Of a stretch of DNA of 64,000 nt, positions 40,300 through 57,493 are shown one piece after another. The position numbers and the translations under genes are program-made. The notes beneath the pieces are model-generated. The model made no database searches, was not told the origin of the DNA, and saw only the letters and a program-made list of their open reading frames with translations. The DNA comes from Bacteroidia bacterium (GTDB lineage: Bacteria > Bacteroidota > Bacteroidia > Bacteroidales > GWA2-32-17): positions 1-64,000 of the forward strand of contig JACREQ010000040.1 in NCBI GenBank assembly GCA_016218155.1, read 5' to 3'. Position 1 is the first letter of the stretch. Every line of letters begins with the position of its first letter.

Positions 40300-41463
40300 T
40301 TGGAAGCATTAAACGATATAATTAAAAAATGTAATGAACTAGCTTTTGACCTGAATTTTACCAGAGCAAAAGAATGGAAGAAACAGGATAATAGCAGAGT
40401 TTTGGTTGGATATATGCCTATTTACTTTCCGCGAGAAATAGTTCATGCAGCTAATGGTTTGGCGGTAGGAATACTTGGCGGTGGAGATAAGAAGCAGATT
40501 ATTAAGGGTGACGCATACTATCAATCATATGTGTGTCATATGCCCCGTGGGATTGTAGAATTAGTACTTGATAATCATCTTGAAGATTTTGACGGATTTA
40601 TATTTCCGTCAATTTGTGATGTAATAAGGAATCTATCCGGAATGTTTCAGCTTTTTGGTAAAGGTAAATTTGTGAAATACATGGACTTTCCTCAAAACTT
40701 CTTACCTGAAGTCGGAGGTGAATTTTATAAATCAGAGCTTCAACATATATTAAATGAGATTAAAAAAATAAATAATATTGAAGTTACACCTGAGCGTCTT
40801 CAAAAATCAATTGATCTATTTAATAAAAACAGAAAACTAACTGAAGAAATATACAATATCAGATCAGAGTTTCCATGGAGAATTACTGCTGCCGACATAT
40901 ATAATATTGTACGTGCCGGTTTTGTAATTCCGGTTGAAGAACATAATGACATTTTAGAAGAAGTTGTAAATCTTTTAAAAGTTGAAAACGGTGAACCTCA
41001 TGATAAAATAAGAGTTCTTGTAATTGGTGCATTCTGCGAACAACCTCCCTTAAGTTTAATAAAAACAATTGAGCTTGCAGGGTGTTATATTATTGAAGAC
41101 GATTTTCTTCTTGGTTCAAGATGGATAAAAGGCGATATAAATACAACAAAATACTCACCTTTAGATTCTATAGTTAGAGCTTACCTCGAACAAAGCACAT
41201 TTTCTTCGTCAGTTTATGATGTAGACAATCCAAAAGAAGGTCGCTTACTAACTCAATTGAAAGAAAGAAACGTAGACGGGATCATTTTTGCAGCTCCAAG
41301 TTTCTGCGACCCAGCTCTACTTGATCATCCTATTTTGCAAAAAGCCTGCGATGATAACAACGTTCGTTACATAAGCTTTTTATACAGCGAAAACACCGGT
41401 CAGTTTAAGGTAATTAAAGAACAGGTCGGAACTTTTTCAGACTCAATTAAACTTTGGGCTTAA
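40300..41463 (+). CDS. bcrC: Benzoyl-CoA reductase (class I), subunit C
   Basis: The 387-residue protein is one of the two iron-sulfur, substrate-binding subunits of ATP-dependent benzoyl-CoA reductase, which reduces benzoyl-CoA to cyclohexa-1,5-diene-1-carbonyl-CoA. It closely follows the Thauera BcrC/Rhodopseudomonas BadD pattern: GYMPIYFPREIVHAANGLAV, GDAYYQSYVCHMPRG, FPSICDVIRNLSGM and AAPSFCDPALLDHPIL. Cys79, Cys106 and Cys336 are the expected cluster ligands. Length equals the family norm (about 385). The start is TTG at 40300, since an in-frame stop lies three codons upstream and no ATG fits the conserved N-terminus. It leads bcrC-B-A-D, the order known from the Thauera type. Confidence 0.93.
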   Translation: MEALNDIIKKCNELAFDLNFTRAKEWKKQDNSRVLVGYMPIYFPREIVHAANGLAVGILGGGDKKQIIKGDAYYQSYVCHMPRGIVELVLDNHLEDFDGFIFPSICDVIRNLSGMFQLFGKGKFVKYMDFPQNFLPEVGGEFYKSELQHILNEIKKINNIEVTPERLQKSIDLFNKNRKLTEEIYNIRSEFPWRITAADIYNIVRAGFVIPVEEHNDILEEVVNLLKVENGEPHDKIRVLVIGAFCEQPPLSLIKTIELAGCYIIEDDFLLGSRWIKGDINTTKYSPLDSIVRAYLEQSTFSSSVYDVDNPKEGRLLTQLKERNVDGIIFAAPSFCDPALLDHPILQKACDDNNVRYISFLYSENTGQFKVIKEQVGTFSDSIKLWA

Positions 41464-41501
41464 TTAAATCACAATTAAAGAAGAAAATATTAATAAATAA
41501 T

Positions 41502-42779
41502 ATGTCAAAATCTGTTAGCAAAGAAAAGAGCATGATCATCCAGAAAGAGATGATTGCAGGATTGTTAAAGGAGTTGGGAAATGCTAAAGAAACCGGAAAG
41601 AAAGTTGTTTATACTTTTGTTCCCGGAAATATTTCAGAGCTTATTCTTGCTTTCGACATGCTTCCTGTTTATCCTGAAATTAATGCACTTCAATCCGGTA
41701 TGCGAAAGAAATCTGAAGGCTTCATACTTGATGCAGAAAAATTGGGACATTCAGAAGATGTTTGTACTTACGTTAAATGTGATGTTGGTATGATGATTAA
41801 TGGTAACATTGGACCATCAGGTGAAAAGATTCCGGCACCTGATCTTTTGTTATTAAGCTATACCGGCTGTTTCACATTTATGAAATGGTTCGAGACATTA
41901 AAACGACTTTACCCAAATGTACCAGTTGCTTTACTTCACACTCCATATCAGGAAGGTCATAAAATTACTCCAGAAATGACGCAATATATGGTAAAACAAC
42001 TCAAAGAAGAAGTTATACCAAAAATGGAAAAAGTTTCAGGTAACAAATATGACGAAGAAAAATTAAAGAAAATACTTGCAAATTCCTCAAAAGTTGAAGA
42101 AACAATAATCAAAATATTTGATACAACTAAAAACCGTCCCTCACCTATTGATGCTTATTTTGCAGGAGTATATTATATCGGACCTATAAATAATGGTTTC
42201 AGAGGAACTCCTGAAGCTATAGATTATTATAATGAGCTATACAAAGAAATTATGGACAGAGTTCATAATGGATTAGGACCTATAACACCTGAAGGTGAAA
42301 TGGAGAAAGAACGTTTCCGTTTAGTGGTTGAAGGTCCACCCAACTGGACACACTTTCGCGAATTCTGGAAATTATTTTATGATATGGGTGCCGTTATTGT
42401 AGCTTCTTCATATACAAAAGTTGGTGGAGTTTACGATATGGGATTCCGTGTAAATCCGGATAAACCATTGGAAAGTCTTGCCGATTACTGTATGAATTGT
42501 TATACAAATCTAAACCTTGAACAACGTGTAGAACTTTTAAGTAAATGTATTACTGATTATCATGCAGATGGATTTCTCGTTAATTCAATTAAAAGCTGTA
42601 ATTCATTCTCGGCAGGTCAGTTAATGATTATGCAACAACTGGAACGTCGTCTGGAAATACCAGTTGGTTTTATTGAATCTGATTTGGTTGATCCTAGATA
42701 CTTTTCATATGCAAATATTAAAAATCGTCTCGAATCATTCTTCCAAATGTTAGAACAACGTAAATTAATTTTAGAATAA
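41502..42779 (+). CDS. bcrB: Benzoyl-CoA reductase (class I), subunit B
   Basis: The 425-residue protein (ATG at 41502, MSKSVSKEKS; a longer in-frame start at 41454 would overlap bcrC) is the partner iron-sulfur subunit of BcrC. The BcrB/BadE signatures are VPGNISELILAFDMLPVYPE, CTYVKCDVGMM, LSYTGCFTFMKWFE, CYTNLNLEQRV, NSIKSCNSFSAGQL and FIESDLVDPRYFS. Ligand candidates are Cys88 or Cys93, Cys123 and Cys366. BcrB and BcrC together bind benzoyl-CoA and hold the catalytic clusters. It is 38 bases from bcrC and 36 bases before bcrA. Confidence 0.93.
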   Translation: MSKSVSKEKSMIIQKEMIAGLLKELGNAKETGKKVVYTFVPGNISELILAFDMLPVYPEINALQSGMRKKSEGFILDAEKLGHSEDVCTYVKCDVGMMINGNIGPSGEKIPAPDLLLLSYTGCFTFMKWFETLKRLYPNVPVALLHTPYQEGHKITPEMTQYMVKQLKEEVIPKMEKVSGNKYDEEKLKKILANSSKVEETIIKIFDTTKNRPSPIDAYFAGVYYIGPINNGFRGTPEAIDYYNELYKEIMDRVHNGLGPITPEGEMEKERFRLVVEGPPNWTHFREFWKLFYDMGAVIVASSYTKVGGVYDMGFRVNPDKPLESLADYCMNCYTNLNLEQRVELLSKCITDYHADGFLVNSIKSCNSFSAGQLMIMQQLERRLEIPVGFIESDLVDPRYFSYANIKNRLESFFQMLEQRKLILE

Positions 42780-42815
42780 TCATAACAATCTTTTAATTAA
42801 GAAAAATAATTATTA

Positions 42816-44198
42816 ATGAAAAAATATTTTTTAGGTATCGACCTTGGTTCAACTACTTCAAAGGCTGTTATTATTAACGAGCAGGATGAAATCATTGGAA
42901 GAGGAATAACAAATACTAGGGCAAATTACATGGTAGCAACAGAAATTGCAAGATTGGAAGCAATTTACAATGCCCGTTTTTCAATTCTTAAAATGAAATT
43001 AGATGATGAAATAAAAAGTAAACCTGAATATAAAAAATATATTGAGGATATTGAATCTGTATTTCAATATTTACAGTTTAAACGTAGATTAGATAAGCTA
43101 ATTGTTCAGTTTGACGAATCAATAAATTCTACTTTTGAAGGTGAGAAAAAAACTACTATTGTTAATTTTGTTAAAACAATATTCAATATTATTGCTCCTG
43201 AAATAAGACATGAATTTATTTTCGCAAATCTTGGAAATAAAAATCAGTTTTTCCGTGATATAGTAAGTGAACGCTACAATAAAGAAATTGCAAAACTTGG
43301 CAAAGAATATTTTGAGCCAATGATGCTGATTTACGATAAAAGTATTACTCCTGTGGAAAATGAATTAACTGAGTTTGATTTTAAAGAACTGATATTTGAA
43401 GCACTTGAAGTTCTTAATGAAAAATATTCTTATTTAGAAAACACAAATCCAGAGGTTTCAGATATCCAGTTCGACATTGAAATGAATATCCTGAAAGGAA
43501 ATCATAAACAAGTTCACGAGTCAATAAAAGAACACATAACTTTTATTGCAAACATGGATATACATATAGCAAACATGGTTGGTACCGGCTATGGTCGTGC
43601 GCTTTTACCATTTCCGGAGAAATCTATAAAATCGGAAATTCTTTGCCATGCTTTTGGTGCCCATGCAGTATTTCCAAATACTAAAACCGTTCTGGATATT
43701 GGTGGTCAGGACACAAAAGCAATTCAGGTTGACAGCCATGGTTTAGTTACAAGTTTTCACATGAATGACAGATGTGCTGCAGGTTGTGGAAGATATTTAG
43801 GCTATATTGCAGATGAATTTAACATTTCACTTAATGAATTAGGTCCCCTTGCATCAGACGCAAAGAAAGAAGTAACAATTTGCTCAACATGTACTGTTTT
43901 TGCAGCCGCAGAAATAAGAGAATTATTAAATGTTGGCGAAGAACGTGCAGACATTCTTGCAGGCTTACATAAATCAATTGTTATGAGGGCGATGTCTTTA
44001 CTTGCGCGTTCAGGTGGTGTTAGAAATGAATTCACATTTACAGGAGGCGTAGCAAGAAACCAAGCTGTATTAAAATATGTTACAGAACTTGTAAGAAAAA
44101 ATTACGGTGACGATCTTAAAATAAATATTCACACCGACTCAATTTTTATGGGAGCTTTGGGCGGTGCAATGTTTGCACGCAGAAGTTATAAAGATTAA
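42816..44198 (+). CDS. bcrA: Benzoyl-CoA reductase (class I), ATPase subunit A
   Basis: The 460-residue protein is the larger ASKHA-fold ATPase of the reductase. ATP-site motifs are FLGIDLGSTTSKAVI, VLDIGGQDTKAI and FTGGVARNQ. The subunit-bridging [4Fe-4S] cluster ligands are expected among Cys320 and Cys324 (DRCAAGCGRYLG) and Cys356 and Cys359 (CSTCTVF). A helical insertion of about 200 residues (about 45-240) sits inside the first ATPase lobe. Such an insertion makes BcrA/BadF longer than BcrD and separates the Thauera type from the Azoarcus Bzd type, whose ATPases are both short. ATP hydrolysis drives electrons from a reduced ferredoxin to the BcrBC clusters. It is 15 bases before bcrD. 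Confidence 0.93.
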   Translation: MKKYFLGIDLGSTTSKAVIINEQDEIIGRGITNTRANYMVATEIARLEAIYNARFSILKMKLDDEIKSKPEYKKYIEDIESVFQYLQFKRRLDKLIVQFDESINSTFEGEKKTTIVNFVKTIFNIIAPEIRHEFIFANLGNKNQFFRDIVSERYNKEIAKLGKEYFEPMMLIYDKSITPVENELTEFDFKELIFEALEVLNEKYSYLENTNPEVSDIQFDIEMNILKGNHKQVHESIKEHITFIANMDIHIANMVGTGYGRALLPFPEKSIKSEILCHAFGAHAVFPNTKTVLDIGGQDTKAIQVDSHGLVTSFHMNDRCAAGCGRYLGYIADEFNISLNELGPLASDAKKEVTICSTCTVFAAAEIRELLNVGEERADILAGLHKSIVMRAMSLLARSGGVRNEFTFTGGVARNQAVLKYVTELVRKNYGDDLKINIHTDSIFMGALGGAMFARRSYKD

Positions 44199-44213
44199 AA
44201 TTAATTTTAAAAA

Positions 44214-45038
44214 ATGGATAACAAATTATACACAATAGGAGTTGATGTTGGAAGTAGTAACATTAAAATGGTTCTTCTGAACTATTCAGAAAATCCTGTT
44301 ATTATTGATAAAGATTCCGAGAAAATTAGAAAACGTAATCCCGAAATGGTTGCAAATTTACTTATCGACCATCTTCTGGAAAAAAACAACCTTAATATAA
44401 AGGACATTGCATACATTGCATCAACTGGAGAAGGTGAAATGCTTACAAGAAAACGAGGTCATTTTTACAGTATGACAACCCATGCCCGTGGAGGAATTTA
44501 TTTTTCGCCCGGCGCAAAAACAGTTGTTGACCTAGGTGCACTGTATGTTAGAGCAATTAAAGTTGACGATTTTGGTAAAGTAATTGACTATAAAATGACC
44601 GGACAATGCGCATCAGGATCAGGGCAATTTATCGAGAATATTTCAAGATATTTAGGTTTAGCTATTGAAGAAGTTGGAGAAACATCTCTAAAATCTACCA
44701 AACCCGAATTACCATCAGGAATATGTGCAGTATTAGCTGAAACAGATGTTATTAATATGGTTTCAAGAGGAATTTCAACACCAGATATAATAAAAGGAAT
44801 TCATCTTTCAATAGCAAATAAAGTTGTTAAACTATTAACATCGGTAAGAGCAGAATCACCTGTTACTCTAACGGGTGGAATGGCAATGAATATCGGAATG
44901 GTTCAGGCTATTAATGAACTTGCTGAGCTTGGTAAGCTAAACTTAACTATTACTTCAAATCCGGATGCAGTATATGCAGGCGCACTCGGTGCAGCTATAT
45001 GGGGTGGTTTCAGGCATCTAAAATTATCTTCAAAATAA
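44214..45038 (+). CDS. bcrD: Benzoyl-CoA reductase (class I), ATPase subunit D
   Basis: The 274-residue protein is the smaller ASKHA ATPase and matches BcrD/BadG: TIGVDVGSSNIKMVLL, VVDLGALYVRAIKVD, GQCASGSGQFIENISRYLG and CAVLAETDVINMVSRGI. Cys132 and Cys171 are the candidate bridging-cluster ligands, and the family length of about 275 is kept. With BcrA it forms the ATP-hydrolysing electron activator of the reductase. The gene closes the four-subunit set and is followed 53 bases later by the ADP-forming synthetase gene on the same strand. Confidence 0.93.
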   Translation: MDNKLYTIGVDVGSSNIKMVLLNYSENPVIIDKDSEKIRKRNPEMVANLLIDHLLEKNNLNIKDIAYIASTGEGEMLTRKRGHFYSMTTHARGGIYFSPGAKTVVDLGALYVRAIKVDDFGKVIDYKMTGQCASGSGQFIENISRYLGLAIEEVGETSLKSTKPELPSGICAVLAETDVINMVSRGISTPDIIKGIHLSIANKVVKLLTSVRAESPVTLTGGMAMNIGMVQAINELAELGKLNLTITSNPDAVYAGALGAAIWGGFRHLKLSSK

Positions 45039-45091: not shown

Positions 45092-47173
45092 ATGAATGAC
45101 TTAAAGGCTTTTTTCGAACCAAAATCAATTGCTTTAATCGGTGCTTCAGTAAAGGAACTTTCGATTGGGAATGTAATAATCAAGAATTTATTACATTATG
45201 GATTCACTGGACCTATATATCCCATAAATCCTAAAGTAGATGAAATTAGAGGATTAAAGGCTTATCAATCTATTATCGATGTTCCGGGTGAAATTGACTT
45301 AGCTCATATTGTAATACCACCAACATTTGTTCCGGAAGAAGTTGAAAATTGCGGAAAAAAAGGAGTTAAAGCTATTATAATAAATACAGCTGGTTTTAAA
45401 GAAATGGGCGCAGAAGGTCAGGCTCTTGAAAATGACTTTCTTGCAATTGCAAAAAAATATGGAATAAGAATAATAGGTCCAAATTGTCAGGGTACAATAA
45501 ATTCCGATCCAAAATATAAAGCATATTGTAATTTCACTTTCACATTTCCAGAAGAAGGATATATTTCTGTTGTTGCACAAAGTGGTGGTGTTGGTGCAGT
45601 TATAATGCAAGCTTTTTATGATTGGGGAATTGGAATGAGAATGTACACATCAAACGGTAATGCATCTGACGTATCAATTCCAGAGGTTATTCGTCACTAC
45701 GGGAATGATGAAAACACACGCGCTATTGTGCTTTATGTTGAAAGTTTGACTGACCCGAAAGAATTCATGGATATTGCACTTGAAGTTACTGCTAAAAAAC
45801 CTATTTTGGCAATGACTGCCGGCAGAACAGATAAAGGTGCAGAAGCATCACGTTCGCATATCGGTGGTTTAGCCGGTAGTATTTCAATGGAAGTTGTTTT
45901 CAAAAAAGTTGGAATTCTTTCATTTACAAATCTTGAAGATTTATGTAATGCTGCAGTTGCATTTGCATACCAACCCATTCCACATGGAAAAAGAGTTGGA
46001 ATTATTACAAATACCGGTGGTCCTTCAGTAATAGCAATAGACGAGCTAGTAAGTAATGGCTTAGAAATTCCGCCACTCTCAGAAAAAGCAAAAGCCATTT
46101 TAAAAACCACAATGCTCGAATCTGCTTCAATTAATAATCCGTTGGACGTTGTTGCAACAGCTAACGCACAGCATTTTAAATCGGCATTTGAAGTTATGAT
46201 GAATGAAGAAAATGTTGACAATATATATGTGAACTTTGTTACCCCTCCATTTGTAGATTGCGAAAGCGTTGCAAGAGAATTTGCAGAAGCTGCAAAAAAC
46301 AGCACAAAACCAATTGTCTGCAATTACATGACTGACAAGCAAAAATGGCAGGAAACTTCAAAAATATTAAAAGATGGTTCAATTCCATGTTTTGATTTTG
46401 CCGAAACTGCAGCAAAAGCATTGGCAGCAATGGTAAGATATAATGATATTTTATCAAGAAAAAAAGGTGAAATAAAACAGTTTATTGACTCTGATAAAAA
46501 CATTTCTAAAATAATAATAGAAAAGGCAAAAGCTGCAAATCGTGAGGTTTTAACTGCAAATGAAGTATATTCAATTCTAGGTGCCTACTCTATTCCTGTT
46601 TCAGAATGGAGAAATGCAAGTAAAGCAGAAGAAGCGGTTGAAGCAGCAATTAAAATTGGTTTTCCAGTTGTTATAAAGGCTGATTCAGAAAAAGTAATCC
46701 ATAAAAGCGATGTTGGTGGTGTTGCTTTAAACATTGAAAATGAAGATCAGGTAATAAAAACTGTAAAAGAAATGCAGGAAAAATTTATAATTAATGATCT
46801 TAAATTTTTTATTCAGAAACAACAACCAAAAGGATTAGAGTTAATTATCGGTGCAAAAAAAGAAGAAGGATTGGGTCATTTGATTATGTTTGGAATGGGT
46901 GGTATTTTTGTTGAAATATTTAAAGATGTAAAATTTAATATTGCACCAATATCAGATATTGAAGCACAGGAAATGGTTGAAACAATTAAAGCAGCAAAAT
47001 TAATTTCAGGATATCGTGGTAACAAAGGGGTTAATAAGAAATTATTAATTGAATTAATACAAAGAGTTTCAAAACTTGTTTCAGATAATCCCGAAATAAA
47101 AGAACTTGATATAAACCCTGTATTTGCTTTCGAAGACAGAGTTTGTGCTGTTGATGCAAGAATAATACTTTAA
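45092..47173 (+). CDS. ADP-forming acyl-CoA synthetase (fused alpha-beta)
   Basis: The 693-residue protein joins a CoA-binding/succinyl-CoA-synthetase-like alpha part (about 1-450: FFEPKSIALIGASVKELSIG, IIGPNCQGTIN, and the phospho-His256 in SRSHIGG) to a C-terminal ATP-grasp beta part (about 475-693: VIKADSEKVIHKSDVGGVAL, ELIIGAKKEEGLGHLIMFG, and DINPVF). Such enzymes interconvert acyl-CoA plus ADP plus phosphate with acid plus ATP plus CoA. The position between bcrD and had suggests either activation of benzoate or 4-hydroxybenzoate at a cost of one ATP, or ATP recovery from an end-product CoA ester. No AMP-forming ligase is in the window. Acyl specificity is not readable. Confidence 0.88.
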   Translation: MNDLKAFFEPKSIALIGASVKELSIGNVIIKNLLHYGFTGPIYPINPKVDEIRGLKAYQSIIDVPGEIDLAHIVIPPTFVPEEVENCGKKGVKAIIINTAGFKEMGAEGQALENDFLAIAKKYGIRIIGPNCQGTINSDPKYKAYCNFTFTFPEEGYISVVAQSGGVGAVIMQAFYDWGIGMRMYTSNGNASDVSIPEVIRHYGNDENTRAIVLYVESLTDPKEFMDIALEVTAKKPILAMTAGRTDKGAEASRSHIGGLAGSISMEVVFKKVGILSFTNLEDLCNAAVAFAYQPIPHGKRVGIITNTGGPSVIAIDELVSNGLEIPPLSEKAKAILKTTMLESASINNPLDVVATANAQHFKSAFEVMMNEENVDNIYVNFVTPPFVDCESVAREFAEAAKNSTKPIVCNYMTDKQKWQETSKILKDGSIPCFDFAETAAKALAAMVRYNDILSRKKGEIKQFIDSDKNISKIIIEKAKAANREVLTANEVYSILGAYSIPVSEWRNASKAEEAVEAAIKIGFPVVIKADSEKVIHKSDVGGVALNIENEDQVIKTVKEMQEKFIINDLKFFIQKQQPKGLELIIGAKKEEGLGHLIMFGMGGIFVEIFKDVKFNIAPISDIEAQEMVETIKAAKLISGYRGNKGVNKKLLIELIQRVSKLVSDNPEIKELDINPVFAFEDRVCAVDARIIL

Positions 47174-47208: not shown

Positions 47209-48192
47209 ATGAAAAAACAACTTTCCAAAATTGGAATTATTGGGTTAGGTCCTATTGGGGAAACACTAGCTGTTCATTTTAATGAAGCTGGATGTGAAGT
47301 AGCAATTACCGATCTTGACAGAGAGAAATTAAGTTTAGTAAGATCTCATGGTATTGAATTGTGCGGAAAAATTCAAAAAAAGTCATATTTCAAGCATGTT
47401 TATAATTCTATTGAAGAATTAATGGAGCATGATTTCGATTTGTTAATTAGTGCTGTAAAAGCTTACCATGTTGACACAATTTTAGATGAACTTGATAAAA
47501 GCGGCAAAAAAGATCTTTATTTACTAAGTGCTCAAAATGGAATTGATATTAGAAAAAAATATGTAAACCATTTTACAGATTCAAAAATTTTCAGAATGGT
47601 TGTAAACTATGCAGGTAATTTACAAGCTCCAAATGTAGTTAACATTAATTTCTTTAATCCTCCTAATTTTGTTGGCTCTATTGACGATTCACAAAAAGAA
47701 ATGGCTCAATGGATAGCTGATACATTGACTAGTGTTAATCTTGAAACAAGAATGGCTGACTCTTTTGTAATTGCTGATAAAATTTGGGAAAAAACTATAT
47801 TAAATGCAGCTCTTAGTCCACTTTGTGCTATTTCCAGATTAACAATGAAAGAAGCAATGAGTCACCCTGACACTTTAGAAATTGTTGAACAAATTTTATA
47901 CGAAGCCGTTGAAGTCGCCAAAGCAGAAGAGATTAAATTACCTGACAACTTTGTTAAATTATGTATTCGTTATTTAATGGCTGCCGGAAATCACATGCCT
48001 TCTCTTGCAGTTGACTTAATTAACAATAAAGAAACTGAAATCGATTATATGAACGGTAAAATAGTTGAATACGGAAGAAAACATTATATACGAACTCCGT
48101 TAAATTTAACATTCACAAATCTGGTTAATGCAATCGGACATAAAAATGGTGTAAATAATTACAAGAAAAAAGACACTTTCAGATTTGAATAA
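47209..48192 (+). CDS. Ketopantoate reductase-like (PanE/ApbA) dehydrogenase
   Basis: The 327-residue protein has an N-terminal Rossmann site (IGIIGLGPIGETLAVHF), the family pattern ISAVKAYH and QNGIDIRKKY around the substrate pocket, and a helical C-terminal domain (ADKIWEKTILNAALSPLCAI, IDYMNGKIVEYGRKH) with the conserved Lys and Asn. True PanE makes pantoate for CoA synthesis. Here the gene is inside the benzoyl-CoA operon, 36 bases after the synthetase and 35 bases before had. It may therefore serve as an NAD(P)-dependent dehydrogenase in that pathway or support CoA supply. Neither is shown by sequence. Confidence 0.75.
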   Translation: MKKQLSKIGIIGLGPIGETLAVHFNEAGCEVAITDLDREKLSLVRSHGIELCGKIQKKSYFKHVYNSIEELMEHDFDLLISAVKAYHVDTILDELDKSGKKDLYLLSAQNGIDIRKKYVNHFTDSKIFRMVVNYAGNLQAPNVVNINFFNPPNFVGSIDDSQKEMAQWIADTLTSVNLETRMADSFVIADKIWEKTILNAALSPLCAISRLTMKEAMSHPDTLEIVEQILYEAVEVAKAEEIKLPDNFVKLCIRYLMAAGNHMPSLAVDLINNKETEIDYMNGKIVEYGRKHYIRTPLNLTFTNLVNAIGHKNGVNNYKKKDTFRFE

Positions 48193-50488: not shown

Positions 50489-51070
50489 AGTTCTATGTTA
50501 TTTGTTCTATGTTCAACAAAACATTTATCTTTTAATTGAATAGTTAACGATGAAAGCAAACAAAGAACAATGAACCTGAAACAAAAAAAAAAAATAAACG
50601 ATTAAATAGAAACTAAAGGTTATGTCCACTTTTAAAAAATTTGAAGATTTAGAAATTTGGCAACTTGCTCGTAAATTATGTAATAATATTTTTGAAATTA
50701 CAGAAAAGGGAAGCTTTGTTAAAGATTTTAGATTTAAAGATCAGATAAAATCTTCAAGTGGATCAATAATGGACAATATTGCAGAAGGATTCGGAAGAGG
50801 TGGAAATAAAGAGTTTGTTAATTTTTTAAGCATTGCTTTAGGTTCATGCTCAGAATGTAGTTCACAGCTATATCGTGCGTTAGATTGGAAATATATTTCA
50901 GAAAGCGAGTTTAAAATCAGTTCTCAACTCTGCGAAGAAATTATCTCAAAATCCGGAGGATTAATTTCGTATCTTAAAAATTCGGACTTAAGAGGTACAA
51001 AGTTTCATAAAACAGCAACCGATAAACATTGAACGATTAACTTAAGACATTGAACATAAAACAAAGAACT
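50489..51070. mobile_element. Repeat-flanked unit carrying a four-helix-bundle gene
   Basis: AGTTCTATGTTATTTGTTCT and following bases at 50489-50514 are an approximate inverted copy of GAACATAAAACAAAGAACT at 51052-51070. Between them lies only the four-helix-bundle gene. The unit interrupts the otherwise tight oah-dch arrangement, which suggests insertion. No transposase is present. Confidence 0.4.
50622..51032 (+). CDS. Four-helix bundle protein (23S rRNA intervening-sequence type)
   Basis: The 136-residue protein has the pattern FEDLEIWQLARKLCNNIFEI, FRFKDQIKSSSGSIMDNIAEG, FGRGGNKEFVNFLSIALGS and a final helix pair, typical of the small four-helix bundle proteins first seen in rRNA intervening sequences. 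Their function is unknown; the fold forms pentamers in solved examples. In Bacteroidota they occur singly among unrelated genes with short repeats at their sides, as here. A metabolic role in the benzoyl-CoA pathway is unlikely. Confidence 0.88.
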   Translation: MSTFKKFEDLEIWQLARKLCNNIFEITEKGSFVKDFRFKDQIKSSSGSIMDNIAEGFGRGGNKEFVNFLSIALGSCSECSSQLYRALDWKYISESEFKISSQLCEEIISKSGGLISYLKNSDLRGTKFHKTATDKH

Positions 51071-51120
51071 TGAAACATTTAACACAAAACAATGAACATT
51101 TAACATACAACAAAAGAAAG

Positions 51121-51894
51121 ATGACTAAAATAAAGTTAGAGTACACTCATGATAACTCTGTAGCAAGAATAATTCTTGACGATGGAAAAGGCAATGTTCT
51201 TGACAATATAATGATGAATGAGTTAATTCCTTTGCTTCAATCATTCAAAACAAACAATAACATTAAGCTTATTACTTTTGAAGGAGCAGGAAAAAACTTT
51301 TCATTCGGTGCCAGTGTTGAGGAACACACTAAAGAAAAAGCTGATGAAATGCTAACAACATTTCACAAAATATTTTTTACTTTACTTGATTTACATATTC
51401 CTACAATGGCAAAAATTTCAGGTCAATGCCTAGGTGGAGGACTTGAATTACCATTAATGTGTAATTTTCTTTTTGCAGATAAAACTGCGAAACTTGGTCA
51501 GCCAGAAATTGTGCTAGGTGTTTTTGCACCTCCAGCTTCAATAATGCTTCCATTAAAAATTGGTAACGCAAGAGCTGAAGAACTATTAATTACTGGAAAA
51601 ATAATTAATGCAGAAGAAGCTAAAAATCTTGGGCTGTTAAATGAAGTTTTCGAAGATAAAGAAACTCTTGAACGTGAAATTGATGCTTGGATAACTAAGA
51701 ACATATGTCCAAAATCTGCAATTTCATTACGTTATGCTACTAAAGCAGCAAGAGCGTCATTTGATTATTTTATGTTAAAAAACCTACCTGTTTTTCATGA
51801 TCTTTTTGTAAAAGATTTAATGGAAACAAATGATGCCAATGAAGGAATTAATTCTTTTATGGAAAAGAGAAAAGCCGAATGGAAAAACAACTAA
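51121..51894 (+). CDS. dch: Cyclohexa-1,5-diene-1-carbonyl-CoA hydratase
   Basis: The 257-residue crotonase-fold enzyme starts at the ATG at 51121 (MTKIKLEYTHDN); the frame from TTG 51070 adds low-complexity residues from the spacer. The motifs GAGKNFSFGASVEEH (oxyanion hole), GQCLGGGLELPLMCNFLFAD and LGQPEIVLGVFAPPAS match Dch/BamR, including the FAPPAS stretch. It adds water to the dienoyl-CoA produced by benzoyl-CoA reductase to give 6-hydroxycyclohex-1-ene-1-carbonyl-CoA, the substrate of had. Confidence 0.88.
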   Translation: MTKIKLEYTHDNSVARIILDDGKGNVLDNIMMNELIPLLQSFKTNNNIKLITFEGAGKNFSFGASVEEHTKEKADEMLTTFHKIFFTLLDLHIPTMAKISGQCLGGGLELPLMCNFLFADKTAKLGQPEIVLGVFAPPASIMLPLKIGNARAEELLITGKIINAEEAKNLGLLNEVFEDKETLEREIDAWITKNICPKSAISLRYATKAARASFDYFMLKNLPVFHDLFVKDLMETNDANEGINSFMEKRKAEWKNN

Positions 51895-52036: not shown

Positions 52037-53275
52037 ATGAGTGAAGAAATTAAAGAAGTAGCAAAATTACAATCCGTAAATGCATTACGGAAAACTATGG
52101 ACGAGTATTTTTTACGTCTTAGTACTGCTGCTGAAACCGGAAATAAAAAAATTGCATGGTGTACAAGCGTCGGACCAGCAGAGCTTTTATATTCTATGGG
52201 TTTTGAAGTTTATTTTCCTGAAAATCATGGTGCAATGTTAGGAGCTTCAAAATTAGCAGACAAATATATTCCTACTGCTGTTGCTCATGGTTACTCACCT
52301 GATATTTGTTCATACTTAACTGCTGATATAGGTGCATTTTTACAGAACGAAACACCTCTTCAAAAAAATGGTTTTAAATCTGTTCCAAAACCTGACATTT
52401 TAGTTTATAACACAAATCAATGTCACGAAGTTGGTGACTGGTTTATGTATTATGCAAAACATTTTAATGTTCCAATACTTGGAGTAAATACTCCACTTTG
52501 GATAAATGAATTAACACCTAGCATAATAAACGGAATTGCAAATCAGTTTAAAGATTTAGTTCCGGAATTAGAAAAAGTTGCAATACAAAAATTCGATTTG
52601 GAAAAATTCCGCGAAACTGTTCATTTATCTCACGAAGGTTGTGTCTTGTGGCGCAAAGTTCTTGAAACAGCAAAACATAAACCCTCTCCTATTAACTTTT
52701 TCGATTCAGCAATTCATATGGGCCCCATTGTTGTAATGCGTGGAACCCAATATGCAGTTGACTACTACAAAATTCTTCTTACTGAATTAGAAGAAAGAAT
52801 TAAAAATAATATTAGTTCAATACCTAATGAAAAATTAAGATTATACTGGGACGGAATGCCATTATGGTATAAACTCAGCAGTATGTCTAAACTTTTTGCT
52901 CATCACGATACATGCGTAGTAGCATCTACATATTGTAACAGCTGGGTATTTGACGACCTAGATCCTAAAGACCCTTTTGAGTCATCTGCAATTGCTTATT
53001 GCAAATTGTTTATTGTTAGATCTGATGATGCAAAACAAAATGTTCTGGAAAAATTAATGACTGATTTTTCAATTGATGGCATTATTTATCACGATGCAAA
53101 AACATGTGCACGTAATTCAAACAATCGCTTTGGATTGCAAAACAGACTAAATGAAAAAAATAAAATTCCTTATCTGGAGATAAATGGTGACTTATGTGAT
53201 TCACGTTGTTATAGTGAAGAACAAAGCATTATAGCTATTGAAACTTTTATAAAACAATTATCTACTAGAAAATAA
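52037..53275 (+). CDS. 2-hydroxyacyl-CoA dehydratase/benzoyl-CoA reductase-family catalytic subunit
   Basis: The 412-residue protein is a third member of the HgdB/BcrB/BcrC iron-sulfur family but not an ortholog of either Bcr subunit. The family outline is WCTSVGPAELLYSMGFEVYF, candidate ligands Cys91 (SPDICSYLTADIG), Cys129 (YNTNQCHEVGDW) and Cys357 (DAKTCARNSNN), and the closing EINGDLCDSRCYSEEQ. It is followed by its own activator ATPase gene, so one catalytic chain plus one activator may make a separate enzyme. This could be another aryl- or enoyl-CoA reductase or a 2-hydroxyacyl-CoA dehydratase. Substrate is unknown; context favours a CoA ester of this pathway. Confidence 0.82.
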   Translation: MSEEIKEVAKLQSVNALRKTMDEYFLRLSTAAETGNKKIAWCTSVGPAELLYSMGFEVYFPENHGAMLGASKLADKYIPTAVAHGYSPDICSYLTADIGAFLQNETPLQKNGFKSVPKPDILVYNTNQCHEVGDWFMYYAKHFNVPILGVNTPLWINELTPSIINGIANQFKDLVPELEKVAIQKFDLEKFRETVHLSHEGCVLWRKVLETAKHKPSPINFFDSAIHMGPIVVMRGTQYAVDYYKILLTELEERIKNNISSIPNEKLRLYWDGMPLWYKLSSMSKLFAHHDTCVVASTYCNSWVFDDLDPKDPFESSAIAYCKLFIVRSDDAKQNVLEKLMTDFSIDGIIYHDAKTCARNSNNRFGLQNRLNEKNKIPYLEINGDLCDSRCYSEEQSIIAIETFIKQLSTRK

Positions 53276-53279: not shown

Positions 53280-53368
53280 GCCACTAAAACACAAAATCGC
53301 TAAATCTCACAAAAGACAATTCACTAATTATTTCTTCGTGAATTTTTGTGCTTTGGTGAATTTGTGGC
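53280..53368. repeat. MITE-like palindrome of the GCCAC repeat family
   Basis: The left end GCCACTAAAACACAAAA (from 53280) and right end TTTTGTGCTTTGGTGAATTTGTGGC (to 53368) face each other across about 45 bases. The left half matches the tandem units at 30231-30440. It occupies nearly the whole 108-base spacer between the catalytic subunit and its activator gene. Confidence 0.65.
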
Positions 53369-53383
53369 AAATAAAATATAATT

Positions 53384-54139
53384 ATGTATAAAATAGGAAT
53401 TGATCTAGGCTCATCATTTACCAAAGGTGTATTAGTTGACGATAACAATAATATTATTGATTATCATTTAACACGTACAGGATTTGATTTCAATAAAGCG
53501 GCTCAAAAAATAATTGATAAATTTTCAGCTGACCATGAAATTCAATACCCAGTATACACCTGTGGATATGGTCGTGAAGAATTAAAAATTCCTTTTGCCT
53601 CTAACTCAGAAATTATTGCATTGGCAAATGCCGTTTTCAAACATTACAATAAAAAATGTTCAATCATTGATATAGGCGGACAGGATACAAAATATGTTAC
53701 AGTTAGCGAATCTGGCCAGGTTGATAAATTTAAGATGAATCGCAAATGTGCTGCAGGAACAGGTTCATTTATTGAAGAAATTGCATTCAGATTAGATATT
53801 TCTGTTGAAGAATTTACTTCATTAGCAAAACAAGCTACAGAAGAAACAAAAATAAATAGTTACTGCACAGTGTTTGCAGTTTCTGAAATTGTTGGAATGA
53901 TTAAAAAAGGATCTACAATGCCAAATATAATTCTCGGCATTTACAATTCTGTTATTGACAGAAGTGTTGAATTATCACCAATAGAAGATTTTTTAGTAAT
54001 TACAGGAGGTATCCCAGACAATCATCCATTAATAGTGAATTTATTTAAAAAAAGATTTCCAAATTGTGATAGCCCTGAGAAATCTCAGTTTATGGCAGCC
54101 TATGGATGCGTTCTACTCAATTTGGAAAACAATATTTAA
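53384..54139 (+). CDS. ASKHA-family activator ATPase of 2-hydroxyacyl-CoA dehydratase/reductase type
   Basis: The 251-residue protein matches the HgdC/activase family: GIDLGSSFTKGVLV, IIDIGGQDTKYV, and cluster ligands Cys122 (KCAAGTGSFIEEI) and Cys161 (YCTVFAVSEI), one from each half so that a homodimer holds one [4Fe-4S] cluster. It couples ATP hydrolysis to electron injection into the preceding catalytic subunit. The C-terminal TGGIPDNHPLI closes the ATP site. It is shorter than BcrA and closer to dehydratase activators than to BcrA or BcrD. Confidence 0.87.
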   Translation: MYKIGIDLGSSFTKGVLVDDNNNIIDYHLTRTGFDFNKAAQKIIDKFSADHEIQYPVYTCGYGREELKIPFASNSEIIALANAVFKHYNKKCSIIDIGGQDTKYVTVSESGQVDKFKMNRKCAAGTGSFIEEIAFRLDISVEEFTSLAKQATEETKINSYCTVFAVSEIVGMIKKGSTMPNIILGIYNSVIDRSVELSPIEDFLVITGGIPDNHPLIVNLFKKRFPNCDSPEKSQFMAAYGCVLLNLENNI

Positions 54140-54172
54140 CAACGAACAAGAATAATAAATAAACAATCAATA

Positions 54173-54178
54173 AGGAGG
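54173..54178 (+). promoter_or_regulatory. Strong Shine-Dalgarno (AGGAGG)
   Basis: AGGAGG lies 6 bases before the ATG at 54185. Such a strong site is unusual here, where most starts lack one. The next gene has GGAGG at 55391-55395, 7 bases before its ATG. Confidence 0.8.
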
Positions 54179-54184
54179 CACAAA

Positions 54185-55381
54185 ATGAAAGTAGTCGAAT
54201 CAATGTTTCCAAATGCACGAATCCCATACGGAACCTGGGGAAGTAGTTACTTTCCAGCATGGCAATCATCACCATTAGCAGAAGTAAATATAGGTCAGTT
54301 TGCAGGAGAAGCTATGGCAAATATATTAGGAAAAAGAAAAGTTTCACGAAAAGAACTTGAGTATCTTGTTATAGGTTCAACAATTCCATGGCATTGGAAA
54401 TTCTGGAACGGACCAGCTGTTGCAAGTTGCATGGGACAAAGAATTCCCGGATTCCAAATGGAACAAGCATGTGCCACCGGATTAAGTTCAGTAATTCTTG
54501 CCGGATCAGAAGTAAATTCAAAATCATACGATGTTGCAGGTGTTTTAACATTTGACAGAACAAGTGATTCACCGGTTGGTGTTTTTCCAGAACGTCGCTC
54601 ATACAGAAGAACTGAAGTTCTTGCTGACGTTTGGGATAATTTTAATTTTGACCCTTCAACTGGTGGAACCATGATGGCAACTGCCGGTTTAGCTGCTCGT
54701 AAATATAAAATCGACAAAAAAGAAGTCGACGAGTTAACATATCTCAGATATAAACAATATTTCAATGCAAAGAATTCTGGTTTTCTGGATAAAGTACTAT
54801 TCTCATTCGATGTATTAAATGTTCAGGGAAAATCTCTTGGTAAAATCAGTGAAGATGTTGGTGTTCGTGAAATTTCTTTACAGTCACTTAATGACCAAAG
54901 AGAATTAGATACTTGTGTAACATCAGGCACACAAACTCATGCTGCAGATGGAATGGCTACACTACTTGTTGCGTCTCCTGCAAAATCAAAAGAATTAAGC
55001 ACTAGACCAGAAATAAATATTGAATTTATTGCAAAAATTGATGTTCGTACATTACCAGGATTAATGCCCGAAGCACCCGGAATGGCAGTTCAAAAATTAC
55101 TTCAACGAACAGGATTAACAATGAATGACATGAAAGTTGTTAAAAACCATAATCCTTTTGCTGTTAACGATGCTATTTTTGCAAAAACAATGAATTACGA
55201 TTGGGCAAAAATGAATAACACCGGTTGTTCACTTGTGTGGGGACATCCTCAAGCACCAACCTTAACAAGAATTATTATCGAAGCATTGGAAGAAGCAGTT
55301 GACTTGGGTGGTGGTTATGTATTAGTTTTTGGTTGCGCTGCCGGCGATGTTGGTACTGCAGGTATTTTTAGAGTTTCATAA
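54185..55381 (+). CDS. Thiolase-family acyltransferase
   Basis: The 398-residue thiolase-fold protein has the nucleophile Cys96 in EQACATGLSS, a variant KNHNPFAVND box in place of NEAFA, WGHPQAPTLTR in place of GHPxGxxG, and VFGCAAGDVG with the second Cys. It differs clearly from the classical thiolase at 29022. Paired with the fused dehydrogenase/hydratase that starts 22 bases later, it probably cleaves 3-oxopimelyl-CoA to glutaryl-CoA and acetyl-CoA, the last beta-oxidation step after ring opening. Chain-length preference cannot be confirmed. Strong Shine-Dalgarno sites on both genes hint at a shared foreign origin. Confidence 0.8.
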   Translation: MKVVESMFPNARIPYGTWGSSYFPAWQSSPLAEVNIGQFAGEAMANILGKRKVSRKELEYLVIGSTIPWHWKFWNGPAVASCMGQRIPGFQMEQACATGLSSVILAGSEVNSKSYDVAGVLTFDRTSDSPVGVFPERRSYRRTEVLADVWDNFNFDPSTGGTMMATAGLAARKYKIDKKEVDELTYLRYKQYFNAKNSGFLDKVLFSFDVLNVQGKSLGKISEDVGVREISLQSLNDQRELDTCVTSGTQTHAADGMATLLVASPAKSKELSTRPEINIEFIAKIDVRTLPGLMPEAPGMAVQKLLQRTGLTMNDMKVVKNHNPFAVNDAIFAKTMNYDWAKMNNTGCSLVWGHPQAPTLTRIIIEALEEAVDLGGGYVLVFGCAAGDVGTAGIFRVS

Positions 55382-55402
55382 CAAAGAATCGGAGGAAAAA
55401 TT

Positions 55403-57493
55403 ATGATAAATCAAATGAGATCGTCAACATTACAGACCTTAGGATTAGGTTCTGTATTTGAAATATTTCAGAACGGAAAATTACCTGTAACAGCAGAAGA
55501 ATTGGTAGAACAAATTTTTGGGAAAGCTGATAACAGAGGAGCATTAGTTATATCTGGGGCAAACGGAATAGTTGGCGCAGGAAAGACAATGCAATTAGGG
55601 TCAAGACTTGAGCCTTTCGGTATTCCAATCGTAGCCCTTGATTTTCCAGGTGTTTCGGATGGTATTGCAAAACAATATCCAGGATTAGTAAAAGCATTTG
55701 GTAAAGGAAATGCCAATAAAGTAATGGGTAACATTATAAAATATTCATATGATGGAAAAACTCTTCCTAAAGGATTAGCTGCTCACAATCCAAAATTCTT
55801 ACTCGAAGCTATTCCAGAAATACTTGATATTAAAAAAGAACATTATAAAACATTCAGAGAAAATTTTCCGGATATTGATATCTGGTCTGTTACATCAGGA
55901 TTCCCAAGTTCTCAATTAGGTGTTGGAATTGCTCACCCTGCATTTCCTCACGAAGTAAATAAAATTTGGGAAATTGTTGAACCAACTCCATCAGCTAGCT
56001 CAAAACTACTATGGGCATTAGGTTTAATCCCTATGCAGGTTAGCGATAACTGGGCATTTGTGCTCGATGTTTTATTCTGCGGACTTACTCTTGCAGGATC
56101 AAGATTTAATGAGGCTACCAATATGCCTTTCTGGAAAACAGATAAATATATTCGAAAATATTACGGACCAAATCCATTCAGAGCACATGATGCAATTGGT
56201 GCTGCCGGCGCAAATTTCTTAACCTGGTCTTGTTTACATCATTTAAGTCAGCATTACGGTGAATTGTTTACACCTACCGATATTTTAAATGAGAAGAAAG
56301 ATAGCGGAATGAACTGGTATCCACTAGATCATTTCAGACCAATGGTTGATTGGTCGATGAATGAAGAGGAAACTGCTGAATTTAATGCATGGATACTTGG
56401 TCCTCTTTTCCAAATGACAAGTATGATGTTACACGAAAACCGTTCACATCTTTCGCAAATGAATTTAATTGGTGAATTATGTGCACAATTCAGTAAAGGA
56501 GTTCTTGCTGTTACCCGTAACTTAGGTGCTGACGCTGTAAGGAATATTGTTAGCGATTACCATAAACTTCATCCGGCAGCCGCAAAACAAGCATGGTATC
56601 CTGAGGTATTTGATAAAATTGATTCACCTGAATGGCAACAATTATATGTTAATGCAGAGCATGATGGAAAGGTAGGAGTTATTTCAATTAACCGTGAAAG
56701 CTATAACCATGATGTAAATGCCGAACTTAACAGAGCTATCGATTGGTTAAAATCTAACAAAATAGAAAATGTAATAATTACCGGCGATTTCCATATTGCA
56801 ACTCAAATGGTTGGTGCCGATACTACTGAATTTTTTCCAGCAATTGAAAATGCAAATATTGGCATTGAACTTAGCAAAGCATGGTCAATTACTGCACGTC
56901 GTTTAAATTCTGACTTTAAAACTTCTGTAGGTTTTATAAATGGCAAACGTTGTTTAGGTGGATTCCTTGAACTAATGGTACATTGCCATTATTTAATTGC
57001 CGAAGAAAATTCATCACTTGGAATGCCGGAAGTTACACTTCCTGTAATTCCTGGAATGGAAGGTTGTCATTGGCCTTTAAGAAAAATGAATTCTGCTAAC
57101 TATAAAGATTTTCTACATTTTATTTTATCCGGAAAATCAGTAAAAGCAAAAGATTCTGTAGGCTGGTTAACTGACTATGCTGGTAACATGGAACAATCTA
57201 TAAAAATGGCATGGAAATTAGCTTCAGGCACAGATCATGGTTTGAAAAAACGTGAACTAAACGAAAAGAGTATTTCTGATATTCCAACTGAAGTTTCCGG
57301 ACTTGCAAATACCGAAGATGAAACAATTACTGAAGCACGCAAAGCTATAATGGCTTGTATTCAGAATTCTTGCAAAGCAACTTTAGCTGATGCAATTTCT
57401 GTACAAGCAAAACACTCTGGTGATTTTATGACTACTAAACTTTGTAAAAAAGGTGTAGTTGGCTCTGCTTATACAAAGACGTGGAAAGTGTAA
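55403..57493 (+). CDS. Fused 3-hydroxyacyl-CoA dehydrogenase/enoyl-CoA hydratase (dehydrogenase first)
   Basis: The 696-residue protein has an N-terminal divergent 3-hydroxyacyl-CoA dehydrogenase (about 1-410) with a nucleotide-binding variant ISGANGIVGAG and GIAHPAFPHEVNKIWEIVEP around the catalytic His-Glu pair. A crotonase domain follows (about 415-640) with CLGGFLELMVHCHYLIA and SLGMPEVTLPVIPG, keeping both catalytic glutamates. The order dehydrogenase-then-hydratase is the reverse of FadB and resembles FadN. It probably oxidises 3-hydroxypimelyl-CoA for the thiolase encoded just upstream. The last gene of the operon, it ends 12 bases before a large inverted repeat. Confidence 0.8.
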   Translation: MINQMRSSTLQTLGLGSVFEIFQNGKLPVTAEELVEQIFGKADNRGALVISGANGIVGAGKTMQLGSRLEPFGIPIVALDFPGVSDGIAKQYPGLVKAFGKGNANKVMGNIIKYSYDGKTLPKGLAAHNPKFLLEAIPEILDIKKEHYKTFRENFPDIDIWSVTSGFPSSQLGVGIAHPAFPHEVNKIWEIVEPTPSASSKLLWALGLIPMQVSDNWAFVLDVLFCGLTLAGSRFNEATNMPFWKTDKYIRKYYGPNPFRAHDAIGAAGANFLTWSCLHHLSQHYGELFTPTDILNEKKDSGMNWYPLDHFRPMVDWSMNEEETAEFNAWILGPLFQMTSMMLHENRSHLSQMNLIGELCAQFSKGVLAVTRNLGADAVRNIVSDYHKLHPAAAKQAWYPEVFDKIDSPEWQQLYVNAEHDGKVGVISINRESYNHDVNAELNRAIDWLKSNKIENVIITGDFHIATQMVGADTTEFFPAIENANIGIELSKAWSITARRLNSDFKTSVGFINGKRCLGGFLELMVHCHYLIAEENSSLGMPEVTLPVIPGMEGCHWPLRKMNSANYKDFLHFILSGKSVKAKDSVGWLTDYAGNMEQSIKMAWKLASGTDHGLKKRELNEKSISDIPTEVSGLANTEDETITEARKAIMACIQNSCKATLADAISVQAKHSGDFMTTKLCKKGVVGSAYTKTWKV

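What the first reader, a model, noticed from the sequence alone, without database searches (positions are those of the whole stretch)
40300..57493. Apparently complete anaerobic benzoyl-CoA degradation operon in a Bacteroidota genome
Seen: bcrC-B-A-D, had, oah and dch are all present on one strand, with family-defining motifs and normal lengths, followed by a thiolase and a fused beta-oxidation enzyme. Known: these are the steps from benzoyl-CoA to 3-hydroxypimelyl-CoA (Thauera/Rhodopseudomonas type). Inference: the flanking genes carry the product to glutaryl-CoA. To my knowledge ATP-dependent class I reductase is described mainly from Proteobacteria and some archaea, while obligate anaerobes usually use the tungsten class II enzyme. 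A class I set in an apparently anaerobic Bacteroidota would extend both taxonomy and energetics.
Basis: partly seen in the sequence, partly recalled or inferred. Interest (0 to 1): 0.92.

Follow-up and report, generated by a model that had tools for sequence, protein, structure and literature searches.

The report
Swappable ring-breaking enzyme in benzoate operon
A Bacteroidota bacterium with genes for nitrate and oxygen respiration carries a full set of genes for breaking down benzoate without oxygen, and in a sister species the ATP-driven ring-breaking enzyme at the head of the same operon is swapped for an unrelated tungsten enzyme.

Summary
Window 40300-57493 encodes bcrC-B-A-D, an ADP-forming acyl-CoA synthetase, had, oah and dch, plus a thiolase and a fused FadB-like enzyme. 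A glutaryl-CoA dehydrogenase lies at 61778 and a 4-hydroxybenzoyl-CoA-reductase-like set at 29-36 kb. The reductase is class I, bcr (Thauera) type, in a Bacteroidota draft genome with native flanks.

Class I BCR is not new to Bacteroidota: 66 of the 80 best GTDB loci come from Bacteroidota records, and two papers mention the pathway there. The organism does not look like an obligate anaerobe: its bin holds NarG, aa3 and cbb3 oxidases, as expected for class I.

The new point is that the reductase is exchangeable. In congener G001 (92-97% identity over ACD-HGD2) the same operon, behind the same dacB-side region, has a class II bamB-I set and no bcr. Of five congeners, two have BcrB only and three BamB only (one of these 74% complete). 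A related MAG carries both classes head to head.

A single-subunit HadB-like radical protein (51 of 58 loci) and a ketopantoate-reductase-like protein (52 of 58) accompany the pathway without a known role.

The parts
40145..40299 (+). Region between dacB and bcrC, shared with the dacB-side gap before bamB in G001; holds TATATTTG at 40183-40190, a TAnnTTTG Bacteroidota -7-like element (element recalled; one hit where 0.26 per 350 bp is the window average)
   Evidence: blastn 70.9% over 151 bp, E 7e-14 in a 1.4-kb target; alignment; element position and count
40300..41463 (+). bcrC, class I benzoyl-CoA reductase, double-cubane-type subunit
   Evidence: TIGR02263 461 > 421; MbdN 9g87_B E 4e-54; Cys79/106/246/262/336 in 75/75 and Cys11 in 69/75 homologues
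41454..42779 (+). bcrB, active-site subunit of class I reductase
   Evidence: TIGR02260 651 > 487; MbdO 9g87_A; Cys104/109/139/346/349/382 in 78/78
42816..44198 (+). bcrA, ATPase / electron-activating subunit
   Evidence: TIGR02259 419 (cut-off 578, top hit); MbdQ 9gai_D E 2e-62
44214..45038 (+). bcrD, ATPase / electron-activating subunit
   Evidence: TIGR02261 317.5 > 312.9; Cys132/171 in 67/67
45092..47173 (+). ADP-forming acyl-CoA synthetase (inferred benzoate/aromatic acid-CoA ligase)
   Evidence: PF13549, PF13607, PF13380; NF045493 540 bits, below cut-off 1300
47209..48192 (+). KPR/PanE-like dehydrogenase, role unknown; fused to the activase in G118
   Evidence: TIGR00745 157 > 141; fusion in L023
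48227..49288 (+). [quoted passage not shown]
   Evidence: TIGR03201 458 > 339
49392..50486 (+). oah, 6-oxocyclohex-1-ene-1-carbonyl-CoA hydratase/hydrolase
   Evidence: TIGR03200 597 > 464
51070..51894 (+). [quoted passage not shown]
   Evidence: TIGR03189 206, top hit, below cut-off 293
52037..53275 (+). HGD2: single-subunit HadB-like radical [4Fe-4S] protein, role unknown
   Evidence: PF06050; AF2 pLDDT 87, best fold 3o3m_A HadB TM 0.88/0.91; five Cys in 53/53 sequences, window included
53384..54139 (+). activase of HGD2
   Evidence: TIGR00241 165 > 125
54185..55381 (+). divergent thiolase (inferred 3-oxopimelyl-CoA thiolase)
   Evidence: TIGR01930 145, below 241; Cys-His-Cys positions kept in alignment (residue roles recalled)
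55403..57493 (+). divergent FadB-like fusion, 3-hydroxyacyl-CoA dehydrogenase + crotonase
   Evidence: hhalign to FadB-like fusions prob 99.6, E 1.8e-23, 592 columns, 21% identity
61778..62956 (-). glutaryl-CoA dehydrogenase, nearest the decarboxylating type
   Evidence: 3d6b 468 bits vs 242 for 3mpi; NF045552 269, below 470
32149..34950 (-). fused 2Fe-2S + Mo subunit, 4-hydroxybenzoyl-CoA reductase-like
   Evidence: TIGR03194 822, below 995, top hit
31211..32149 (-). FAD subunit with HcrB-type [4Fe-4S] insert
   Evidence: 1rm6_B E 9e-36, Cys121/137/145/154 aligned; TIGR03195 202, below 405
29022..31210 (-). canonical thiolase (29022-30212) and SDR (30467-31210), linked to the hcr genes
   Evidence: TIGR01930 439 > 241; synteny in G004
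34969..36381 (-). XdhC-like and MobA-like Mo-cofactor maturation genes
   Evidence: PF13478, PF12804

Best explanation
This is a catabolic operon that oxidises benzoate (and, with the linked hcr genes, probably 4-hydroxybenzoate) in a facultatively respiring Bacteroidota. Inferred steps: the ADP-forming synthetase makes benzoyl-CoA. BcrCBAD reduces it to cyclohexadienoyl-CoA using ATP and a low-potential donor (ferredoxin, by analogy). Dch, Had and Oah lead to 3-hydroxypimelyl-CoA. The FadB-like fusion and thiolase give glutaryl-CoA + acetyl-CoA, and the glutaryl-CoA dehydrogenase gives crotonyl-CoA. The dearomatising step is a replaceable cassette. Downstream of one dacB-side region and upstream of one conserved backbone (synthetase-KPR-had-oah-dch-HGD2-activase), different species hold either class I bcrCBAD or class II bamBCDEFGHI. 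Shown: gene content, order, the swap and the shared flanks. Inferred: substrates, reaction direction, expression, and that the swap tracks electron acceptor or energy budget.
For: Family models and structures for the enzymes. G001:C159 is one contig with dacB-side DNA - bamB-C-D-E-F-G-H-I - ACD-KPR-had-oah-dch-HGD2-act2-thlL-fECH; ACD to HGD2 are 92-97% identical to the window. G001 BamB aligns over 651 residues of the 653-residue Geobacter BamB chain 4z3w, 1273 bits. Genus of five: BcrB over cut-off in G000, G004; BamB in G001, G002, G003; never both. Among 60 relatives, own included: BcrB over cut-off 2, BamB 4, both 0. G048, another family, has the same bam-backbone order. L033/G454 has bam and bcr divergent, 272 bp between the called ORFs (302 bp from the conserved bamB start), with the backbone behind bcr. 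Backbone tree: at least 3 changes of class over 17 rows; L033 (both) not counted, G003 not in the tree.
Against: BcrA, Dch and the hcr subunits score below curated cut-offs. The genus is known only from drafts of 113-410 contigs; G004's record is a MAG and the others probably are; G000 has 4.4% estimated contamination; G003 is 74% complete and shows only pieces of BamB. In G002 the bam set is on a different contig from the backbone, whose synthetase there follows an mnmH piece, so the in-place swap is shown for G001 (with G048 alike). The bam quartet does not reject vertical descent (AU p 0.29). No link to respiration was shown: only about 25% of G002 could be looked at. No source of reduced ferredoxin was found: no RnfC over the cut-off, others not searched. 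No expression data.
Confidence: 0.85

Rival explanations
1. An ordinary class I benzoyl-CoA operon; the bam/bcr difference between congeners is a binning or assembly artefact.
For: Genus members are drafts of 113-410 contigs. The bam quartet slightly prefers G001 with another family over its congener, though not significantly.
Against: bam and backbone lie on one G001 contig whose end carries the window's dacB-side DNA. The bcrD-synthetase junction is seen in both G000 and G004; G004's contig ends 104 bp before bcrC, so dacB-bcrC itself is seen only in G000. G048 repeats the bam-backbone order and L033 holds both on one contig.
Confidence: 0.08
2. The cluster runs mainly in reverse or sideways (benzoate or cyclohexanoate formation, or ATP gain through the ADP-forming synthetase) rather than degrading benzoate.
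For: The synthetase is of the ADP-forming kind, which is reversible (recalled). Class II holders could in principle run reversibly (recalled chemistry).
Against: Class I reduction is ATP-driven and practically irreversible (recalled). A decarboxylating-type glutaryl-CoA dehydrogenase, nitrate reductase and oxidases point to oxidation. Many related loci have an AMP-forming ligase instead (33 of 58 AMP only).
Confidence: 0.05
3. HGD2 + activase + KPR form a phenylalanine or phenylpropanoid entry branch (2-oxo acid to (R)-2-hydroxyacyl-CoA to enoyl-CoA to benzoyl-CoA) feeding the ring pathway. This concerns the companion module and can hold beside the main explanation.
For: HadB is the best fold. 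The three cysteines aligned with the HadB cluster ligands are kept. KPR is fused to the activase in G118. HGD2 in 51 and KPR in 52 of 58 loci with enough downstream DNA.
Against: No HadC-type second subunit and no CoA-transferase was recognised in the operon. NF052455 cut-off not met (219 vs 750). Two extra invariant Cys (42, 300) are not Cys in HadB in the alignment.
Confidence: 0.25

Closest known systems
Class I BCR of bcr/mbd type (Thauera; MbdONPQ structures 9g87, 9gai)
   Same: BcrC, BcrB and BcrA align to MbdN, MbdO and MbdQ; conserved cluster cysteines; had-oah-dch beside them
   Different: Backbone with ADP-forming synthetase, KPR, HGD2 and its activase; divergent FadB/thiolase pair; host is Bacteroidota
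Class II BCR, bamBCDEFGHI (Geobacter BamB 4z3w)
   Same: G001, G002 and G048 carry BamB, Fe-S, HdrA, MvhD-like, NuoE/F and HoxU-like genes in bam order
   Different: In G001 it sits in the slot that class I occupies in its congeners, in front of the same backbone
Desulfotomaculum gibsoniae (PMC4148979; passages read)
   Same: One genome with class I and class II BCR genes
   Different: bzd-type class I genes not in one transcriptional unit; a strict anaerobe; no swap between congeners described in the passages
Vicingaceae MAG (PMC8470020) and Flavobacteriales MAG 18 (PMC8099898); passages read
   Same: Bacteroidota with BCR genes plus NarG, or with expressed benzoyl-CoA degradation in a nitrate-fed reactor
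   Different: No operon described in the passages; 'Bzd-type' in PMC8470020. L088, record 'Vicingaceae bacterium isolate KA17', is presumably that MAG (its number is not in the passages) and its BcrB is 76% identical to the window's bcr-type protein
(R)-2-hydroxyisocaproyl-CoA dehydratase HadBC / HadI (3o3m)
   Same: HGD2 has the HadB fold, three aligned cluster Cys and an activase
   Different: No second subunit in the module; extra invariant Cys; in a benzoyl-CoA operon

Membership tests
Class I benzoyl-CoA reductase, bcr type | BcrC and BcrB active-site subunits over curated cut-offs, above dehydratase models | tested here: met
   461 > 421 and 651 > 487; HadC/HadB models 172 each
Class I benzoyl-CoA reductase, bcr type | Two ASKHA ATPase subunits BcrA and BcrD | tested here: inconclusive
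   BcrD over cut-off; BcrA top hit but 419 < 578; BcrA aligns to MbdQ, E 2e-62
Class I benzoyl-CoA reductase, bcr type | Cluster-binding cysteines | tested here: met
   BcrC Cys79/106/246/262/336 in 75/75 and Cys11 in 69/75; BcrB six Cys in 78/78; BcrC Cys aligned with Cys of MbdN. That they bind the clusters is by analogy with BzdNO (PMC11971306)
Class I benzoyl-CoA reductase, bcr type | ATP-dependent benzoyl-CoA reduction | not testable with these tools
   needs protein
Had/Oah branch of benzoyl-CoA pathway | Had and Oah equivalogs | tested here: met
   458 > 339; 597 > 464
Had/Oah branch of benzoyl-CoA pathway | Dch equivalog | tested here: inconclusive
   top hit, 206 < 293
Class II benzoyl-CoA reductase (G001) | BamB orthologue | tested here: met
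   residues 1-651 of the 653-residue chain, 1273 bits to 4z3w; next best AOR 220 bits
Class II benzoyl-CoA reductase (G001) | Bam C-I electron-transfer genes in order | tested here: met
   gene types and order; the comparison with the Geobacter order is recalled
4-hydroxybenzoyl-CoA reductase | HcrA/B/C models over cut-off | tested here: not met
   822 < 995; 202 < 405; 156 < 258; so called 'like' only
4-hydroxybenzoyl-CoA reductase | [4Fe-4S] insert of HcrB | tested here: met
   Cys121/137/145/154 aligned to 1rm6_B
(R)-2-hydroxyacyl-CoA dehydratase (for HGD2) | Heterodimer HadB+HadC | tested here: not met
   only one HGD-D gene in the module
Double-cubane protein DCCP (for HGD2) | Six cluster cysteines; NF040772 | tested here: not met
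   five invariant, sixth candidate 40/53; NF040772 58 < 350

The most novel reading that the evidence does not exclude
In this Bacteroidota genus the ring-reducing enzyme is a plug-in cassette. ATP-burning class I and tungsten, electron-bifurcating class II replace each other in place behind one promoter as species move between respiratory and strictly anaerobic life. Bacteroidota also run a pathway variant with an extra, undescribed radical step carried out by HGD2/activase/KPR.
Probability: 0.3. Interest if true: 0.85.

Novelty: new variant of a known kind. Interest (0 to 1): 0.66.

Why it matters
Why some anaerobes pay ATP for dearomatisation and others use a bifurcating tungsten enzyme has been argued from distant organisms. 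Here close relatives share the rest of the operon and differ in the reductase, so cost, redox partner and regulation can be compared on one background. The data also show that class I benzoyl-CoA degradation is widespread in uncultured Bacteroidota and tie a radical enzyme of unknown role to it.

Tried and rejected
Double-cubane identity of HGD2: tested and dropped (only five Cys invariant, the sixth candidate in 40 of 53; HadB is the best fold).

Horizontal origin of G001's bam genes: BamB is 90% identical to that of G048 against 82% to congener G002, but the concatenated quartet does not reject vertical descent (AU p 0.29), so I make no claim.

tblastn of eight respiratory proteins of G000 (NarG, NarH, CtaD, CcoNO, a third COX1 protein and three neighbours) on about 25% of G002 (1.22 of 4.8 Mb) gave only distant NarG- and NarH-like matches (25-32% identity over 95-195 residues) and nothing for the oxidases. 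Inconclusive.

The AF2 model of the FadB-like fusion was poor (pLDDT 53). A profile comparison was used instead.

G219 and G056 have Oah over the cut-off but no BcrB over the cut-off and no BamB-level match. On G219's oah contig no ORF resembles a bcr or bam protein. Unexplained.

BcrB against the plasmid collection gave only 22-26% relatives, so no named reference for a wide tree.

The BCR and backbone trees are quick trees without bootstrap; I see no strong conflict over the window's place. A first attempt at them failed.

The NarG stretch has somewhat higher GC (0.349) than the window (0.318), the oxidase stretches do not (0.311); contamination of the bin is not excluded for NarG.

Literature: 9 searches, open-licence PMC papers only. 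No title or abstract start listed there describes a class I/class II swap at one locus. I read passages of seven papers and none in full, so an earlier report may exist.
Full report
OBSERVATION. The window is the first 64,000 of 64,676 bases of contig C40 of a 4.78 Mb draft genome in 113 contigs, estimated 100% complete with 4.4% contamination. BcrC, BcrB, BcrD, Had and Oah pass NCBI's curated cut-offs. BcrA and Dch are best hits but fall below theirs (419 vs 578; 206 vs 293). The nearest solved relatives of BcrB, BcrC and BcrA are subunits of the 3-methylbenzoyl-CoA reductase of Thauera chlorobenzoica (organism named). Cysteines are conserved across loci.

COMPLETENESS. Between bcrD and had lie an ADP-forming acyl-CoA synthetase and a ketopantoate-reductase-like (KPR) protein. 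After dch come a single HGD-D protein (HGD2) and its activase. The last two genes are a divergent thiolase, with the Cys, His and Cys positions of thiolases kept (residue roles recalled), and a fusion that aligns over 592 columns with FadB-like enzymes (probability 99.6). The acyl-CoA dehydrogenase at 61778-62956 matches decarboxylating glutaryl-CoA dehydrogenases (468 bits, 3d6b) far better than the non-decarboxylating one (242 bits, 3mpi; which PDB entry is which type is recalled). At 29-36 kb lies a molybdenum enzyme with a fused 2Fe-2S domain, a FAD subunit with the four-cysteine insert of 4-hydroxybenzoyl-CoA reductase, a thiolase, an SDR and cofactor genes. Its models stay below their cut-offs, so I call it 4-HBCR-like.

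HOST AND CHIMERISM. T9SS sorting domains lie on the contig. The cluster contig of congener G004, C110 (12,180 bases), agrees in length and in gene identities with L031, whose record names an uncultured Bacteroidetes bacterium. Window 11-37 kb is syntenic with G004:C167, 31-40 kb with G001:C347, and 45-63.6 kb with G001:C159. The flanks are native. GC is 0.28-0.37 in 2-kb steps, with no break at the cluster.

LIFESTYLE. The same bin holds NarG (1484 bits, cut-off 1084), CtaD (680, cut-off 671) and a fused cbb3 CcoNO (1233, cut-off 1080), on three contigs. There is no RnfC over the cut-off. So the organism is by genome a facultative respirer. A legend I read ties class I to facultative and class II to obligate anaerobes (PMC10936416), and another passage calls class II characteristic of strict anaerobes while noting class I genes in one of them (PMC4148979). 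The window fits the rule rather than breaking it.

DISTRIBUTION. BcrB over the cut-off: 3 of 395 phylum genomes, own included, and 2 of 60 relatives, own included. A scan of GTDB r220 contigs gave 256 relatives, of which the best 80 (74% identity or more) were kept. By NCBI's ranks for the record titles 66 are Bacteroidota, 5 Chlorobiota, 4 Ignavibacteriota, 1 Calditrichota and 4 unassigned. Class I BCR is thus widespread, though not frequent, in uncultured Bacteroidota. Prior print: a Vicingaceae MAG with four BCR subunits and NarG (PMC8470020; L088, isolate KA17, is presumably it) and a Flavobacteriales MAG that expresses benzoyl-CoA degradation (PMC8099898).

THE SWAP. The species G001 has no BcrB over the cut-off, yet its ACD-to-HGD2 backbone genes are 92-97% identical to the window's. 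On its contig C159 the backbone is preceded by bamB-C-D-E-F-G-H-I (bamH is cut at the border of two fetched stretches, its two pieces adding up to the length of its homologues). BamB is a true BamB: it aligns over 651 of the 653 residues of Geobacter 4z3w at 1273 bits. The 388 bases at the contig end beside bamB match the window's dacB-bcrC gap (70.9% over 151 bp, E 7e-14; 86% over 44 bp next to dacB; both E-values for a 1.4-kb target). Both gaps hold a TAnnTTTG element in the shared block (element recalled, weak by itself). So bcrCBAD and bamB-I sit in the same slot behind the same upstream region. In the genus, G000 and G004 have BcrB only, and G001, G002 and G003 have BamB only; G003 is 74% complete and its BamB is in pieces. 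G000 and G004 do have a weak AOR paralogue (36-37% over about 190 residues), which is not BamB. In 60 relatives (own included) BamB occurs in 4 and BcrB over the cut-off in 2, never together. Oah is over the cut-off in 6 of 60. G048, of another family, repeats the bam-backbone order. L033/G454 carries bam and bcr head to head, 272 bp between called ORFs, with the backbone behind bcr. On a quick backbone tree of 18 rows, with L033 left uncounted and G003 not included, class changes at least 3 times. In G002 bam lies on another contig and its synthetase follows an mnmH piece, so the exact in-place exchange rests on G001 and is echoed by G048.

THE COMPANION MODULE. Of 80 loci, 3 had no intact bcrB ORF in my calling and were dropped. 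Of the rest, 58 had at least 9.5 kb downstream; HGD2 is in 51 and KPR in 52 of these. HGD2 also accompanies bam-type operons (G001; G048). Its model (pLDDT 87) is closest to HadB. It keeps three cysteines that align with Cys of HadB (taken as cluster ligands by analogy with BzdO, PMC11971306) plus two more that are invariant (each 53 of 53). No HadC-type partner is in the module. KPR is fused to the activase in G118. I do not know its reaction. An entry branch from 2-oxo acids is the best guess, at about 25%.

VERDICT. A real operon, complete in gene content, with a known core chemistry. The exchange of class I and class II reductase at one operon slot between close relatives, and the companion module, are what is new as far as my searches show.

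Noticed in passing
window 29022-36381; L135 (G002:C46), L136 (G003:C381), L150 (G454:C44): In G002 the Mo-hydroxylase between the cofactor genes and the SDR/thiolase is a 42-43% identical version, and G003 has a like one beside its SDR/thiolase; in G002 and G454 the FAD subunit that goes with it lacks the [4Fe-4S] insert, and in G002 it scores as XdhB-like. A second exchange at one locus.
   Followed up: partly
window 50622-51032: A 23S-rRNA-IVP-like four-helix-bundle gene sits between oah and dch in the window and G002, and after oah in L039, but not in G004 or G001.
   Followed up: no
G219:C76 (L181), G219:C37 (L027), G056:C114: Two genomes have Oah and HGD2 but neither BcrB over the cut-off nor a BamB-level match; in G219 the genes are scattered. 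Another reductase or loss.
   Followed up: partly
window 54185-57493; L079, L093, L101, L106: The divergent thiolase + FadB-like pair recurs in few of the 80 loci (thiolase 68-71% in L093, L101, L106; fusion also in L079), while many others show an ordinary thiolase in that part of the cluster.
   Followed up: partly
window 45092-47173 and L023:12368-14110: The ligase varies: of 58 loci, ADP-forming only 16, AMP-forming only 33, both 7, neither 2. A different ATP price for the first step.
   Followed up: partly
window 723-9894: Three adjacent long proteins (1143, 791 and 1115 aa) match one and the same G002 ORF at 46-48% over 160 aa; that ORF lies just upstream of the G002 synthetase.
   Followed up: no
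L148:1808-4273, L150:12653-15118: An 821-aa protein follows the thiolase in the G048 and G454 operons; the G048 copy has no NCBIfam hit at E 1e-30.
   Followed up: no
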